DNA of 64,000 nt, taken from Arachidicoccus soli. GTDB lineage: Bacteria > Bacteroidota > Bacteroidia > Chitinophagales > Chitinophagaceae. Each line of letters starts with the position of its first letter. Positions within the stretch are counted from its first letter, which is position 1. The DNA lies in contig NZ_CP032489.1 in the NCBI RefSeq assembly GCF_003600625.1, positions 2,604,001 through 2,668,000 of the forward strand, in the 5' to 3' direction. The position numbers and the translations under genes were made by a program. The notes beneath the pieces are model-generated. The model had not been told where the DNA came from, did not search any database, and saw nothing but the letters and a program-made list of their open reading frames with translations. Below, in pieces: positions 20,788 through 32,037 of this stretch.

Positions 20788-21576
20788 TTATTCTTTCAGC
20801 GTGTTTGTGAAACTACCGAAGCGCAAAATCTTTTCGCTGTTTGCTTTATTAAACAGTAAATGTTCAAAATCTTTTTGCTTTACATTTAAGTCAATGGTCT
20901 TTAGTCGCTCCTTTGTTGCTTCTTTAAATTCTTTCAAGTTATTGATGCCACAACGTTTTGCGAGAAAATCATAATCGGGTTTTGCTTGTGATAATAAAAA
21001 CATTAAATCGTAAAAATCACGTCCTTTGGAACGCGCTAACATCGCTGCGATTTTCATGCTGCACACTACTCCGTCGGAGGGAGCGGGAAACGGAAAGAAA
21101 AATCCGCAACCGCTTATATCAATAATATTCGGTTTATAATTTATACCTTGATCTTGACTTTCAACTTTGATTAAAAACCTTTCTTCCTTGTGTCCGCTCA
21201 GCTCCATATCAAACAACAACTCGGGAAAATAAATACTCCGCCTGAATGCTGTGAGTTTTGCGTTATACTTATCCTTTGTTTCCACTCGCCAACCTGAACG
21301 TTTCAAAAACAGCATAATATTGTTTGTCATTTCCATGAACTCATTTTCCGACAAGTCTTTACAATCAAAATCTATATTTTCTGAAAATCGGTCAATACCT
21401 TTTGCCAAACGCAAATTTGTGCCGCCAATAAATACAATCTTTTTCGTATAAGGAGTAGATGACAAATAATCCAATATCATTAATTGCAGATATTCCTTTA
21501 GCATGTGTTTGTAAAACACAGCGTTGTCTCGTATCTGCATCGGAAAATAATTTTTAATTTGTTCTATTTTTATCAT
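20788..21576 (-). CDS. abiEii: AbiEii/AbiGii-type nucleotidyltransferase toxin
   Basis: 262 residues of the AbiEii (type IV toxin, DNA polymerase beta-like nucleotidyltransferase) family. The active-site signature IGGTNLRLAKGIDRFSENID (about 50-69) has the GG(T/S) loop, the conserved arginine and serine, and an N-I-D-F in place of the usual D-I-D-F. Later, MKIAAMLARSKGRDFYDLMF is the conserved helical motif. Such proteins inhibit growth by nucleotidyl transfer (tRNA or other acceptors in studied members). Its start overlaps the antitoxin stop by ATGA (21573-21576). The first aspartate replaced by asparagine may affect metal binding. Confidence 0.87.
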   Translation of the reverse strand: MIKIEQIKNYFPMQIRDNAVFYKHMLKEYLQLMILDYLSSTPYTKKIVFIGGTNLRLAKGIDRFSENIDFDCKDLSENEFMEMTNNIMLFLKRSGWRVETKDKYNAKLTAFRRSIYFPELLFDMELSGHKEERFLIKVESQDQGINYKPNIIDISGCGFFFPFPAPSDGVVCSMKIAAMLARSKGRDFYDLMFLLSQAKPDYDFLAKRCGINNLKEFKEATKERLKTIDLNVKQKDFEHLLFNKANSEKILRFGSFTNTLKE

Positions 21577-22190
21577 AGTCCATAAGTTTTGAAAAGAATC
21601 TTTACTCTTTGTTCCAGTGCATTACTTTGGAATCTCGAAAGATATTCCATTAATTGCTCTTTGTTTAAATCATCGTGCAAATAATCTTCATCCAATCGTA
21701 AAGCCCCGATTTCCTCTTCATTATTGTAAAACGAATAGAGATATAGCAAATCAAGCAACGCCTTCTCGGGCGTTGCAAACTGTAGGGTACGGTTATTTGC
21801 CATCGGTTTTAATTCATATCCAAAGACCAAACTTTCCTTTACACTCTTATATGAATATTCTCCGAATTCATTGGTGAAAGAAATTGTTTTTAATGGAGTT
21901 AAACTCGTAATCTGTGACACCGCTTCGGGTATCATGCCGTAAAAAGCCAATGCCGTATGCAGGCTGATGTATGAAGGACGATATATTCTGTTGGCAAAAT
22001 AAAAAGCGTAATCGCTTTTGTTTTTATATTCGGGAAATGTAAAGTATCCTTGTCTTAGTCTTATGAGATAACCTTTCTTAGTCCAACGGGTTAGGTTATT
22101 TCTGTCGAAATCAGGCTTCCAGGCATACACTTGATTAATATTAAAGCAAGCCAAGTCAAACATCTTATCCTTAAACTCTAGCAGGTTCAT
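21573..22190 (-). CDS. abiEi: AbiEi-type antitoxin
   Basis: 205 residues, with an N-terminal winged-helix region (FDRNNLTRWTKKGYLIRLRQ, GYFTFPEY) and the conserved IYRPSYISLHTALAFYGMIP segment typical of AbiEi antitoxins. AbiEi represses the operon and counteracts AbiEii without direct binding (type IV). It is the promoter-proximal gene and is translationally coupled to the toxin. A -7 box lies upstream. Confidence 0.87.
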   Translation of the reverse strand: MNLLEFKDKMFDLACFNINQVYAWKPDFDRNNLTRWTKKGYLIRLRQGYFTFPEYKNKSDYAFYFANRIYRPSYISLHTALAFYGMIPEAVSQITSLTPLKTISFTNEFGEYSYKSVKESLVFGYELKPMANNRTLQFATPEKALLDLLYLYSFYNNEEEIGALRLDEDYLHDDLNKEQLMEYLSRFQSNALEQRVKILFKTYGL

Positions 22191-22223: not shown

Positions 22224-22348
22224 CAGCATTTTGGAAACAAAATAATCATTTTACATTCTTGAAACTCATTTTCAAATCAACACCCTTTGCTTCCCATCTA
22301 AGAAAACACACTCTGGTTGGGAAAAATTTTCACCCGGAATCAACTGCA

Positions 22349-22424
22349 ACCGTTAATCTGAGTCATTAGGCAGAGCCTGGGAGTTGCAAAGCCCACTCAT
22401 CGTTTAATCTGAGTGGGCAGTTCA
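22349..22424 (+). mobile_element. Solo right end of an IS200/IS605-family element (tnpB tail plus terminal hairpin)
   Basis: This 76-bp stretch aligns without gaps to the right end of the element at 29463-29538 (opposite orientation): 58 of 76 bases identical by hand count. It keeps the tnpB ending TVNLSH-stop (stop 22367-22369; the intact copy ends TVNVSH-stop) and the terminal hairpin GCCCACTCA / TGAGTGGGC (22391-22399 and 22410-22418). Similarity ends at AGTTCA (22424), marking the element terminus. The rest of tnpB and tnpA are gone. Confidence 0.8.
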
Positions 22425-22471
22425 ATTATTGAAAATTTAAAAATGCAAAGGCATCTTTTAATGTGATGATT

Positions 22472-22500
22472 AAAGCATCGCAATTTAATTACGATGCTTT
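22472..22500 (-). terminator. Terminator after dnaJ
   Basis: Inverted repeat AAAGCATCG / CGATGCTTT (loop of 11) 20 nt beyond the dnaJ stop, with flanking A/T on both sides. Confidence 0.65.
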
Positions 22501-22520
22501 AACTGTTGAATATCCGTTTT

Positions 22521-27206: not shown

Positions 27207-28628
27207 ATGGATAAGCTCGTTGGACGAGAAAAAGAATACCAATTGCTTTCTTCATTAAAAGAAAACACCGCATCTTCTTTCATCGCAATATATGGAAGAA
27301 GAAGGGTCGGAAAAACCTACCTGATCCGCAATGCTTTTAATAATAAGTTTGAGTTCCAATTAACAGGTATTGCCAACAGCAATACAGCTCAACAATTATT
27401 AAATTTCAACATTGCAATAAATAAATATGACTTTTCAGAAAATCACCCCATAGCAAAAAATTGGCGAGAAGCATTTCAACAATTAATTACCTTATTAGAA
27501 AAAAGTAAAAGTAAAAAAAAGATTGTATTTCTTGATGAACTACCATGGTTAGATACTGCAAGGTCAGGCTTTATTCAAGCACTGGAACATTTTTGGAATG
27601 CATGGGTCAGTTCGAGGAATGACATCATTTTAGTGGTATGCGGATCTGCTGCAGCCTGGATGATAAATAAATTGATCAACAACAAGGGTGGCCTTCATAA
27701 TAGAATTACCCATCGAATCCGTCTTAATCCATTTACCCTCAATCAGTGTGAGGCTTATTTTAAGAATCGATCGGCCAAATTTGATCGTTATCAAATTCTA
27801 TTAATATACATGGTGATGGGTGGTATACCCTTTTATCTGGATCAGATTGATACCAGTCAGAGCGCAGACCAAAATATTGATCGATTATGCTTCCAACAGG
27901 ATGGTCTTCTTCGAAGGGAATTCAACAACCTATTTCACGCACTCTTTCAGAAGGCTGAAGGTCATATTTCAATTATTGAAGCACTGAGTGTAAAAGGCAG
28001 AGGCCTTACGCGCAATGAAATTATAAAGGCTGCCCATATAACCAATAATGGAGCAGCGACCCTTATGTTGAAAGAACTGGAGGAGAGCCATTTCATTCGT
28101 AAATATGCGCCTTTTAGTAATAAAGAAAAAATGAGCCTCTACCAATTAACGGATCCTTATTCACTTTTTTATTTAAAATGGATAAAAAATTCAAGCGAAT
28201 TAGACCAAAATAATTGGATCAAGCAATTAGATAATCCTAAAAAAAGAGCTTGGACTGGTTACGCTTTTGAACAAGTTTGTCTTGAGCATATTGTTCAAAT
28301 CAAAGATGCATTGGGTATATCCGCTATTGAAACGAGGACCTCCTCTTGGGTTGGTCACGGAGACAATCAAGGGGCACAAATCGATCTTATAATTGATAGA
28401 AGGGATAGAGTAATCAATCTATGTGAGATGAAATTTTCCATTCACCCATTCACCATCACTAAATCCTATGCCGATACTTTAGCCACAAAAATTGCAGCAT
28501 TTAAGGAACAAACAAAAACGAAATCAGCCATATATCTTACACTTATTTCAACTTTTGGTTTAGTATCAAATAGCTATGCTTCATCTATGATCCAAAATGA
28601 TCTGCAAATGGATATTTTATTTAAATAG
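27207..28628 (+). CDS. DUF234-type AAA ATPase (archaeal-ATPase-like)
   Basis: 473 residues. The Walker A P-loop is AIYGRRRVGKTYLIRNAF (about 28-45) and Walker B is IVFLDELPWLDT (about 107-118); NDIILVVCGSAAAWMINKLI and GGLHNRITHRIRLNPFTLNQ are sensor regions typical of this family. A winged-helix region follows (RGLTRNEIIKAAHITNNGAA), then a C-terminal DUF234 region in which QIDLIIDRRDRVINLCEMKF has the D...E.K spacing of a PD-(D/E)XK nuclease fold. Very common in Bacteroidota and archaea, function unknown. It stands alone behind a palindrome-rich leader, suggesting its own regulation. Confidence 0.85.
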   Translation: MDKLVGREKEYQLLSSLKENTASSFIAIYGRRRVGKTYLIRNAFNNKFEFQLTGIANSNTAQQLLNFNIAINKYDFSENHPIAKNWREAFQQLITLLEKSKSKKKIVFLDELPWLDTARSGFIQALEHFWNAWVSSRNDIILVVCGSAAAWMINKLINNKGGLHNRITHRIRLNPFTLNQCEAYFKNRSAKFDRYQILLIYMVMGGIPFYLDQIDTSQSADQNIDRLCFQQDGLLRREFNNLFHALFQKAEGHISIIEALSVKGRGLTRNEIIKAAHITNNGAATLMLKELEESHFIRKYAPFSNKEKMSLYQLTDPYSLFYLKWIKNSSELDQNNWIKQLDNPKKRAWTGYAFEQVCLEHIVQIKDALGISAIETRTSSWVGHGDNQGAQIDLIIDRRDRVINLCEMKFSIHPFTITKSYADTLATKIAAFKEQTKTKSAIYLTLISTFGLVSNSYASSMIQNDLQMDILFK

Positions 28629-29449: not shown

Positions 29450-29462
29450 ATTATTTCTATTG

Positions 29463-29640
29463 TGAACTACCCATTCACGCAAAGCGATGAGTGGGCTTCT
29501 CAACCCATACGCACAGCCTAATGGCTCACGTTAACGGTTGAAGGCTTTATCCGAAGCCCGAATGTTTTAATATTCAAAGCGGCATTTTCATCTCTTTCGT
29601 GATGAGTGCCGCATGATTGACAAGTCCAAGACCTGTCCTT
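29463..29640 (-). ncRNA. Predicted omega RNA (reRNA) of TnpB
   Basis: In IS200/IS605 elements the TnpB guide RNA spans the 3' end of tnpB and the right end, with the guide read from host DNA just outside. Here that places the scaffold from about 29640 down to 29463, with the hairpin 29470-29495, and the guide from 29462 downward into the end of the ferredoxin gene. The 5' limit is a guess from typical lengths. Confidence 0.4.
29470..29495 (-). repeat. Right-end hairpin of the IS605 element
   Basis: CCCATTC (29470-29476) and GAGTGGG (29489-29495) form a 7-bp stem with one wobble. The counterpart in the solo end pairs perfectly. Confidence 0.6.
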
Positions 29641-30651
29641 CAAACTTAGTTCTTTGAAAATATGTCCGCAATGTGAACACAATTTGGACGATGGTTGAAA
29701 CCTGCCGATGTACAGGATATTCTTTCCGTACCATTCGGCTTTGTATTCCAGCATCGTTTTGAATTTGTGCCATCCTACTTCACCAATAGCAAGGGCAAGT
29801 TTTTCGTTTTGCATCATGCCTTTGATGTTTAAATCTTCAAGGCAAATGCTGTTGTAAGAACGAATGATGTGCGTACTTGCTTTGTGTAAGTAGTCCTCAC
29901 GTTGGTTTTTGATGTGTTCGTGAAGTTTAGCAACTACCAGTTTTTGTTTCAGGAAGTTTTTGCTTTGCTCCTTCGCACCCCTTTTAAATCTACGGCTCAA
30001 CTTTCTTTGTTCTACCCGAAGCCTTCTAAGATTATTTCTTAGATGCTTTGGATTGTCAAAGGTTGTTCCGTCTGAAAGGGTAGCAAAAGTTTTCACGCCC
30101 ATATCTATTCCAACGGTTGTTTTCTGCATTACAGGTTTTTTCTTCGGCAACTGCTTTTGGTTCTCAACCAGTATGCTTACGAAGTATTTGCCTGTTGAAG
30201 TCCTGGAAACGGTTACTGTTTTAATCTCGCCTTTAAATTGGCGATGAAAAATACAGGTTACATTTTTCAGCTTCGGGAGGAAGATGATACTGTTCTCAAA
30301 GTCTGTATTCACACCTTGCGGAAACTGTATGGATTGTTTGCGATGCTTTGATTTAAACTTAGGGAAGCCGCCACCTTTAAAGAATTGGGTGTAGGCATTG
30401 TCTAAGTTTCTCAAACTCATTTGAAGCGTTTGTGAAGGGCACTCCTGCAACCATGTTGCTTCGGTGTCTTTCAGTTCCTTCATCTGGTTCGCAAGGTCTA
30501 TACAGGTTAAATGCTTACGTGCGGTAGTCCATGCTTGCATTTTTGTTTCCAGTCCAAGATTGAAAACAAAACGACAGCTACCAAAGAACTTAGCCAGTTG
30601 TTGCTTTTGTTCTTCGGTAGGCAGGAGGCAATATTTGTAGGCTTTGAGCAT
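29518..30651 (-). CDS. tnpB: TnpB RNA-guided endonuclease of the IS200/IS605 element
   Basis: 377 residues, typical length. An N-terminal helix-turn-helix/OrfB region (KAYKYCLLPTEEQKQQLAKF, CRFVFNLGL) is followed by the RuvC-like nuclease with all three acidic residues in place: D in GIDMGVKTFATL, E in ICLEDLNIKGM and D in RDENAALNIK. The zinc ribbon has CSHCG and CQSCG. TnpB cuts DNA at the site matching the omega RNA guide next to a transposon-adjacent motif, favouring retention of the element. It is divergent from tnpA, as in IS608/ISDra2. No truncation is visible. Confidence 0.95.
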   Translation of the reverse strand: MLKAYKYCLLPTEEQKQQLAKFFGSCRFVFNLGLETKMQAWTTARKHLTCIDLANQMKELKDTEATWLQECPSQTLQMSLRNLDNAYTQFFKGGGFPKFKSKHRKQSIQFPQGVNTDFENSIIFLPKLKNVTCIFHRQFKGEIKTVTVSRTSTGKYFVSILVENQKQLPKKKPVMQKTTVGIDMGVKTFATLSDGTTFDNPKHLRNNLRRLRVEQRKLSRRFKRGAKEQSKNFLKQKLVVAKLHEHIKNQREDYLHKASTHIIRSYNSICLEDLNIKGMMQNEKLALAIGEVGWHKFKTMLEYKAEWYGKNILYIGRFQPSSKLCSHCGHIFKELSLKDRSWTCQSCGTHHERDENAALNIKTFGLRIKPSTVNVSH

Positions 30652-30690
30652 TGATGTAAAGGTAATGATTTTTCTTACAAAACCCGATAC

Positions 30691-30738
30691 GTTTTTGTAA
30701 ACCCTTCCCTATTCAGGTAAAAAGGGATTTACAAAAAC
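30691..30738. repeat. Imperfect inverted repeat between tnpB and tnpA
   Basis: GTTTTTGTAAACCC (30691-30704) and GGGATTTACAAAAAC (30724-30738) are complementary except for one extra A. Lying in the 96-bp divergent gap, it may hold overlapping promoters or a control site for both genes. Confidence 0.5.
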
Positions 30739-30747
30739 TACGCTACT

Positions 30748-31158
30748 ATGTCTCAAAAATCTAACTACCAGTCCACCAATCATTCAAAGCACTACTTAAA
30801 ATGCCATCTCATTTTTGTTTGTAAGTACCGTAAGGCAATGCTTGTCGGTCAGCTTAATGATGATGTTAAGCGTATCTTTCTCTCTATCGCTGAAAATTCA
30901 GATTTTGAAATTGAAGTGATGGAGACAGATACAGACCATGTACATTTCCTTATTCGCTACATTCCTCGCCTGTCTATTGTGCAAATTGTTCGCAGGTTAA
31001 AGCAGGAAAGCACTCGTCAGTTGTGGTTGCTGCATGGCAAAATACTCCGTAAGCAATATTGGTATCAGAAATTACTTTGGTCGGATGGCTATTTCGTTTG
31101 TTCCATTGGTGAAGCATCACCTGAAACAGTCAGGCAATACATCCTTTCACAAGGTTAA
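30748..31158 (+). CDS. tnpA: IS200/IS605 Y1 transposase TnpA
   Basis: 136 residues, the family size. The HUH metal-binding motif is DTDHVHFLIRY (H-V-H, about 67-69) and the catalytic tyrosine is in the C-terminal TVRQYILSQG (Y-x3-Q). Intact frame, with LKCHLIFVCKYRKAML as the conserved first strand. The enzyme cuts and joins single-stranded element ends through a 5'-phosphotyrosine link during replication, recognising the subterminal hairpins. Confidence 0.95.
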   Translation: MSQKSNYQSTNHSKHYLKCHLIFVCKYRKAMLVGQLNDDVKRIFLSIAENSDFEIEVMETDTDHVHFLIRYIPRLSIVQIVRRLKQESTRQLWLLHGKILRKQYWYQKLLWSDGYFVCSIGEASPETVRQYILSQG

Positions 31159-31202
31159 TCATTTTCAATCATTATGTAAGTGTAACGGAGTGTCGCTTAC
31201 AT

Positions 31203-31227
31203 CCCATCCACGTAAACGATGGACGGG
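31203..31227. repeat. Left-end hairpin of the IS605 element
   Basis: CCCATCCA (31203-31210) pairs with TGGACGGG (31220-31227) with one mismatch around a 9-nt loop. The apparent start codon of mlaE (31219-31221) sits in the loop-stem junction. Confidence 0.55.
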
Positions 31228-32037
31228 TTTTACGCTCCATCATATAAAAAACAAAAATTCCCAAGGGAGTTTTTTTATTTAAAAGACCTGAAAAAACTTA
31301 GTAATATATTCACCGAGTTTGGCCGATATGTTTTGATGATAAAAAATATGTTTTCAAGGCCGGACAACTGGCGGATGTATAGAAAACAGTTTTTTGAACA
31401 ATGCAATTTCATTGGCATGCAAGCGCTGCCCGTCGTGGCTATTATATCTCTATTTTTAGGGATGGTAATGACGCTGCAGGCCGCCTATATGCTCAACAAT
31501 CCTATTGTTCCTAAATCAGTGATAGCCACTGTAGTGCGCGACAGTATGTTACTAGAGATAGCACCCACGGGTATTTCAGCTATTCTAGCCGGGATTGTTG
31601 GCTTTAAAATAACTTCTGAGATTGGCTACATGCGCCTTTATGAGCAAATTGATGCAATGGAAATGATGGGTGTGCATTCTCTTAATTATATCGTATTGCC
31701 ACGTATAGCAGCTGCAATGCTCACCATCCCCTGTCTGATTATTTTTGCACTTACACTCAGTATGTTTGGTGGATATGTAGTGGCCTTATTTTCCGGCCGT
31801 GTGCCTATTGACTATTATCTCACCGGTTTGGTCACAAATTTTAAACCTTATGAGGTATTAGTTGCTGGCGTAAAAACAATTACCTTTTCTTTTGTTATAT
31901 CAAGTGTAGCCTGTTATTTAGGTTATTACTTTAAAGGGAGTAGCGTAGAATTAAGCAATACTTCAACACGCTCTGTCACACTGAATTGTGTTATCATTCT
32001 CGCCTTAGATTATATTATTACAAGTTATATGTTGTAA
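31219..32037 (+). CDS. mlaE: MlaE-type ABC transporter permease
   Basis: 272 residues from the only ATG that includes the whole conserved domain. The domain starts at about residue 24 (LKKLSNIFTEFGRYVLMIKN) and continues with ALPVVAIISLFLGMVMTLQA, RDSMLLEIAPTGISAILAGI, GFKITSEIGYMRLYEQIDAM and five or so membrane segments. MlaE is the inner-membrane permease of the phospholipid or organic-solvent-tolerance transporter. Residues 1-20 are encoded by the left end of the insertion element, so the native start seems lost. The next in-frame ATG is 31336 (residue 40) and would remove the first helix. No ATPase or MCE gene follows in the window, which is unusual. Confidence 0.85.
   Translation: MDGFYAPSYKKQKFPREFFYLKDLKKLSNIFTEFGRYVLMIKNMFSRPDNWRMYRKQFFEQCNFIGMQALPVVAIISLFLGMVMTLQAAYMLNNPIVPKSVIATVVRDSMLLEIAPTGISAILAGIVGFKITSEIGYMRLYEQIDAMEMMGVHSLNYIVLPRIAAAMLTIPCLIIFALTLSMFGGYVVALFSGRVPIDYYLTGLVTNFKPYEVLVAGVKTITFSFVISSVACYLGYYFKGSSVELSNTSTRSVTLNCVIILALDYIITSYML

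What the first reader, a model, noticed from the sequence alone, without database searches (positions are those of the whole stretch)
22349..22424. Solo IS605 right end 7 kb from an intact element, fixing the element terminus
76 bp align without gaps to 29463-29538 in inverse orientation (58 of 76 identical), covering the last codons of tnpB, its stop and the terminal hairpin. Identity stops at AGTTCA in both, which places the right cleavage site at or next to that point. The hairpin is preserved although its sequence changed (perfect stem in the solo copy, one mismatch in the other), consistent with selection on structure before decay. It could still act as a trap or recombination site for TnpA.
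Basis: seen in the sequence. Interest (0 to 1): 0.6.

Follow-up and report, generated by a model that had tools for sequence, protein, structure and literature searches.

The report
Decayed IS605 right-end fragment
A 90-base leftover of the right end of an IS605-type jumping gene sits between dnaJ and an AbiE toxin-antitoxin pair; it is ordinary, decayed debris, although copies elsewhere in the genome fix exactly where the working element ends.

Summary
The alignment is real: 58 of 76 identical without gaps, and the fragment matches 16 other right ends in its own genome (best E 7e-14). The intact element (29462-31243, 1782 bp) has 12 nearly identical copies in this 4.1-Mb genome. Relatives in other bacteria end the same way while their terminal hairpin changes by compensatory substitutions. 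The solo copy is not a detached end of that element but a diverged lineage, 76-81% identical to all known relatives. It has no left end, no tnpA, no open tnpB, a 14-bp insertion, a 1-bp deletion and eight changes at otherwise invariant sites, including the end itself (TTCAA for TTCAC) and its guide bases (AAAG for GAAG), so their pairing is lost. Its 'perfect' stem is the older state; the C.A mismatch belongs to the 12 copies that spread. Best reading: a dead remnant with a degenerate guide-RNA scaffold. A role as a TnpA trap is unlikely. Known kind, low interest.

The parts
22336..22425 (+). Solo, decayed right end: last tnpB codons, stop, guide-RNA scaffold remnant, terminal hairpin and would-be terminus
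   Evidence: BLAST to 16 right ends in the genome, best E 7e-14; covariance-model match 22300-22425
22391..22418 (+). Hairpin of the solo copy, GCCCACTCA / TGAGTGGGC, 9 pairs, 10-base loop
   Evidence: DNA fold -9.7 kcal/mol, z -6.0
22421..22425 (+). Would-be right cleavage site, TTCAA instead of TTCAC
29462..31243 (-). Intact IS605-group element, 1782 bp, 12 copies in the genome
29462..29495 (-). Right-end hairpin and terminus GTAGTTCAC of the intact element; stem with one C.A mismatch
29518..30651 (-). tnpB, 377 aa (OrfB_IS605, Cas12f1-like TNB)
30748..31158 (+). tnpA, 136 aa (Y1_Tnp, IS200-like)
31244..31248 (-). Left target TTTAT (expected TAM)
   Evidence: Same in all 11 copies with a readable left end

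Best explanation
The feature is a dead relic: the 3' end of a tnpB gene, its guide-RNA scaffold and the right-end hairpin of an IS605-group element from a lineage related to, but different from, the intact copies. The parent would have inserted 3' of TTTAT by single-strand 'peel and paste' and later lost its left end, tnpA and almost all of tnpB. The remnant then drifted: insertion, deletion, and mutation of the cleavage site and of its pairing guide. In living copies the same region works twice: as single-stranded DNA, where the hairpin, with guide GAA pairing to TTC, positions the right cleavage after TTCAC; and as RNA, the scaffold that TnpB carries, with the flanking host DNA as guide. Shown here: homology, exact ends and TTTAT target of the intact family, covariation of hairpin and scaffold, loss of guide-cleavage pairing in the solo copy, no left end found nearby. 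Inferred: the original insertion, the order of losses, and the lack of function.
For: Homology; terminus GTAGTTCAC in 12 of 12 copies and in L081, L082, L083, L097; TTTAT left of all testable copies; the solo copy alone lacks GAA-TTC pairing and has eight private changes at columns where the other eight sequences agree, against 0-3 for all others but the far outgroup L083; 14-base insertion and 1-base deletion in the former tnpB end; no tnpA, tnpB or left end around it; other decay stages of the family in the same genome.
Against: The hairpin arms are unchanged from L081 while 17 of 73 aligned bases differ (P 0.008, post hoc), which could mean continued constraint. One same-genus copy (L129) also ends GCAGTTCAC, so the T to C change alone is tolerated. 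The parent lineage was not found, so its own functional end could in principle have been TTCAA.
Confidence: 0.92

Rival explanations
1. The solo end is still a TnpA substrate: resident TnpA binds its hairpin, so it acts as a trap, or it pairs with a distant left end to mobilise the DNA between.
For: The hairpin is stable; TnpA of 12 copies is present; orphan left ends exist elsewhere in the genome.
Against: Guide and cleavage bases are both changed and do not pair; no left end nearby; orphan left ends lie hundreds of kilobases away.
Confidence: 0.04
2. A stand-alone guide RNA: the scaffold is transcribed and loaded into resident TnpB in trans with the flank (TTATTGAAAATTTAAAA...) as guide.
For: Four helices recognisable by the covariance model; its size resembles the 106-nt scaffold of a studied TnpB (PMC10278001); other orphan right ends have a similar size.
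Against: Helix 3 has three of eight pairs broken; insertion in helix 1; no target with TTTAT plus guide beyond the reversed-pattern control in its own genome; no evidence of a promoter.
Confidence: 0.03
3. The hairpin was taken over by the host, for example as a transcription terminator or RNA stabiliser downstream of dnaJ.
For: Perfect GC-rich stem downstream of dnaJ and upstream of the co-oriented AbiE pair; arms conserved (P 0.008).
Against: Not called as a terminator; only TTT follows the stem on the dnaJ strand; dnaJ already has a closer palindrome with T-run at about 22472-22502 (seen in the sequence).
Confidence: 0.03
4. Chance similarity.
For: Short sequence with a palindrome.
Against: E 7e-14 by sequence; the similarity includes the stop codon, scaffold helices, hairpin and their spacing.
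Confidence: 0.001

Closest known systems
Decayed IS605 elements and the ends-only (PATE-like) sequence of Halanaerobium hydrogeniformans (PMC7290912)
   Same: Series of decay stages of an IS605 element with divergent tnpA and tnpB, down to pieces that keep the last ~60 bases of tnpB and the right end.
   Different: There the ends-only piece keeps a left end; the window's solo piece has none (the 138-bp L124 elsewhere in this genome is the closer match).
ISDra2 of Deinococcus radiodurans, with TnpB and reRNA (PMC8612924)
   Same: Y1 transposase, TnpB, pentanucleotide target left of the element; the right end doubles as the 3' part of the guide-RNA scaffold and the flank is the guide.
   Different: tnpA and tnpB are divergent here; the target is TTTAT, not TTGAT; at the solo locus no tnpB is left and the scaffold is damaged; no RNA or cleavage was tested here.
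IS608 of Helicobacter pylori (PMC5934647)
   Same: Guide sequence 5' of each hairpin pairs with the cleavage site; right guide GAAT with TCAA there, GAA(G) with TTCAC here.
   Different: Target TTAC there; in the solo copy guide and cleavage site no longer pair.

Membership tests
IS200/IS605 family, IS605 group (intact element 29462-31243) | Y1 HUH transposase TnpA | tested here: met
   Y1_Tnp E 3.6e-33; HVH motif visible in the ORF
IS200/IS605 family, IS605 group (intact element 29462-31243) | TnpB with OrfB_IS605 and TNB domains | tested here: met
   E 3.3e-28 and 5.4e-24
IS200/IS605 family, IS605 group (intact element 29462-31243) | Subterminal hairpins, no terminal inverted repeats, insertion 3' of a fixed short target without duplication | tested here: met
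   TTTAT left of 11 of 11 copies, variable right flank, hairpins at both ends
IS200/IS605 family, IS605 group (intact element 29462-31243) | Single-strand transposition activity | not testable with these tools
   Near-identity of 12 copies (0-8 differences) suggests recent activity
Functional IS605 right end (solo copy 22336-22425) | Terminal hairpin | tested here: met
   9-pair stem
Functional IS605 right end (solo copy 22336-22425) | Cleavage site at the terminus and matching guide bases | tested here: not met
   TTCAA and AAAG in place of TTCAC and GAAG; no pairing in the fold
PATE / non-autonomous IS605 derivative (solo copy) | Left end plus right end | tested here: not met
   No left end nearby
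TnpB guide RNA (reRNA / omegaRNA), solo copy | Intact scaffold fold and transcription | tested here: inconclusive
   Scaffold recognisable (81 bits) but helix 3 broken at 3 of 8 pairs; transcription not testable

The most novel reading that the evidence does not exclude
The orphan right ends of this genome (solo, L002, L015, and the tnpB-less L016 and L017) are kept as guide-RNA-sized units of about 105-115 nt that supply guides in trans to the resident TnpB copies, so that decayed elements remain a distributed set of guides.
Probability: 0.04. Interest if true: 0.65.

Novelty: new member of a known kind. Interest (0 to 1): 0.14.

Why it matters
By itself it matters little: debris of IS605 elements is common. 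The comparison it started is useful: it fixes both ends of an active-looking element in a Chitinophagaceae-like genome to the base (TTTAT| and GTAGTTCAC|), predicts TTTAT as the TAM of its TnpB, and shows covariation for a four-helix guide-RNA scaffold.

Tried and rejected
Left end near the solo copy (an AbiE-carrying element bounded by two ends was considered): five left-end variants aligned across the window gave no hit above background in the right orientation. Parent element of the solo lineage: none found in 395 genomes of the phylum by DNA (two short hits judged chance), in 398 genomes of the order by TnpB, or in 296 genomes of the family by the structure model (run with stricter filters that did not list even the solo itself, so weak relatives could be missed). 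Empty site by synteny: the region downstream of dnaJ differs in all same-genus genomes, so the pre-insertion state was not seen. Guide match of the solo flank in its own genome: hits no more frequent than the reversed-pattern control allows to interpret (29 against 21). Rfam: nothing meaningful at 20-32 kb.

Full report
Observation. Window 22349-22424 aligns without gaps to the reverse complement of 29463-29538 with 58 of 76 identities; the 40 bases on either side match at 12 and 11 positions, near background. Searched against the whole genome (G000, 4.10 Mb in one contig), the solo sequence matches 16 other right ends, the best at 79% and E 7e-14, and a covariance model of the right end finds it at 81.3 bits, E 1.6e-22 (the solo sequence was one of the nine used to build the model, so this figure is partly by construction).

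The intact element. At 29462-31243 lies a 1782-bp element with divergent tnpA (Y1_Tnp) and tnpB (OrfB_IS605 with a Cas12f-like TNB domain). The genome holds 12 full copies. Ten are 1782 bp and differ pairwise at 0 to 8 positions; one is 1729 bp; one has extra DNA between left end and tnpA. All 11 copies with a readable left end follow TTTAT.

Hairpin and scaffold. Across nine right ends (resident element, four of a second lineage, three from other bacteria, and the solo), four helices hold 91.6% of cells as standard pairs; 13 of 29 pairs show changes on both sides; the covariation score is 0.324 against 0.127 for shuffles and at most 0.057 when the partner is slid. The structure was derived from the same alignment, which favours it on these counts. 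It agrees with what is established for TnpB elements: the right end and the end of tnpB encode the guide-RNA scaffold, and the flank is the guide (PMC8612924, PMC10278001). The terminal hairpin changes both arms in L082 (CCCATTGG/CCAATGGG) and L083. Between the solo and the resident copy, however, there is no compensatory change: the left arm is identical and the right arm differs by one base. L081, whose TnpB is 91% identical to the resident one, has the solo's perfect stem, so the C.A mismatch is most simply derived in the resident lineage, and that lineage is the one that multiplied. The mismatch is not decay.

State of the solo copy. In minimum-energy folds of single-stranded DNA, the five other right ends tested also pair GAA at the hairpin foot with TTC of the terminus, as expected of guide and cleavage sequences in this family (IS608: PMC5934647). 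The solo copy has AAA and TTCAA and forms no such pair; 2 of 5 positions pair against 4 of 5 in the resident copies. It has eight private changes at columns where the other eight sequences agree; the others have 0 to 3, except the far outgroup L083 with 14. It carries a 14-base insertion and a 1-base deletion in the former tnpB end and breaks three of eight pairs in scaffold helix 3. No tnpA, tnpB or left-end similarity was found around it. The arms of the hairpin are unchanged from L081 while 17 of 73 aligned bases differ (P 0.008, chosen after the fact), a hint that the hairpin was kept for some time, not evidence of present use.

Origin. Identity of the solo copy to the known lineages is flat (76-81%), so it belongs to none of them. 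Its parent was not found in 395 genomes of the phylum by DNA, 398 of the order by TnpB or 296 of the family by structure model. The genome shows a series of decay stages of related elements: a truncated tnpA-tnpB pair (L043), two tnpB-less mini-elements of 324 and 328 bp that share one deletion and lie at different TTTAT sites (L016, L017), a 138-bp ends-only element (L124), left-end-only pieces (L074, L075) and right-end-only pieces (L002, L015, the solo). A comparable series is published for Halanaerobium hydrogeniformans (PMC7290912).

Judgement. A decayed right end of an IS605-group element (0.92). Trap or recombination site, stand-alone guide RNA and host-adopted hairpin are each left at 0.03-0.04. 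What is solid and useful is the definition of the family: ends, target and scaffold. Steps not shown here: transposition, transcription, TnpB activity and the TAM.

Noticed in passing
L016 (G000 185825-186154) and L017 (G000 2720026-2720359): Two tnpB-less mini-elements (324 and 328 bp, 94.6% identical) of a second lineage: left end and 3' part of tnpA fused by the same deletion to the guide-RNA scaffold and right end, each after TTTAT. Look mobilised in trans.
   Followed up: partly
L124 (G000 1810163-1810300): 138-bp ends-only (PATE-like) element: degenerate left end joined directly to a right end, after TTTAT.
   Followed up: partly
L002 (G000 2335038-2335151) and L015 (G000 3591529-3591642): Right-end-only pieces whose left edges lie close together, about 103-114 bases from the terminus, near where a 106-nt TnpB scaffold would begin. 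Unexplained; could be coincidence.
   Followed up: partly
L074 (G000 3016337-3016439) and L075 (G000 3329145-3329173): Left-end-only pieces of the second lineage (103 and 29 bp).
   Followed up: no
L041 (G000 2710534-2711664, left end at 2708463): One full copy has about 1.5 kb of other DNA between its left end and tnpA.
   Followed up: no
window 20788-22190: AbiEii/AbiEi toxin-antitoxin pair (PADLOC E 6.6e-113 and 1.7e-89) directly beside the solo right end; the order of genes after dnaJ differs in the same-genus genomes.
   Followed up: partly
window 27207-28628: ATPase matching PADLOC candidate defence family PDC-S27 over its whole length (E 3.9e-203).
   Followed up: no
L128, L129, L132 (genome G003, same genus): Another lineage with a different scaffold but the same terminus; one copy ends GCAGTTCAC, the others GTAGTTCAC.
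   Followed up: no
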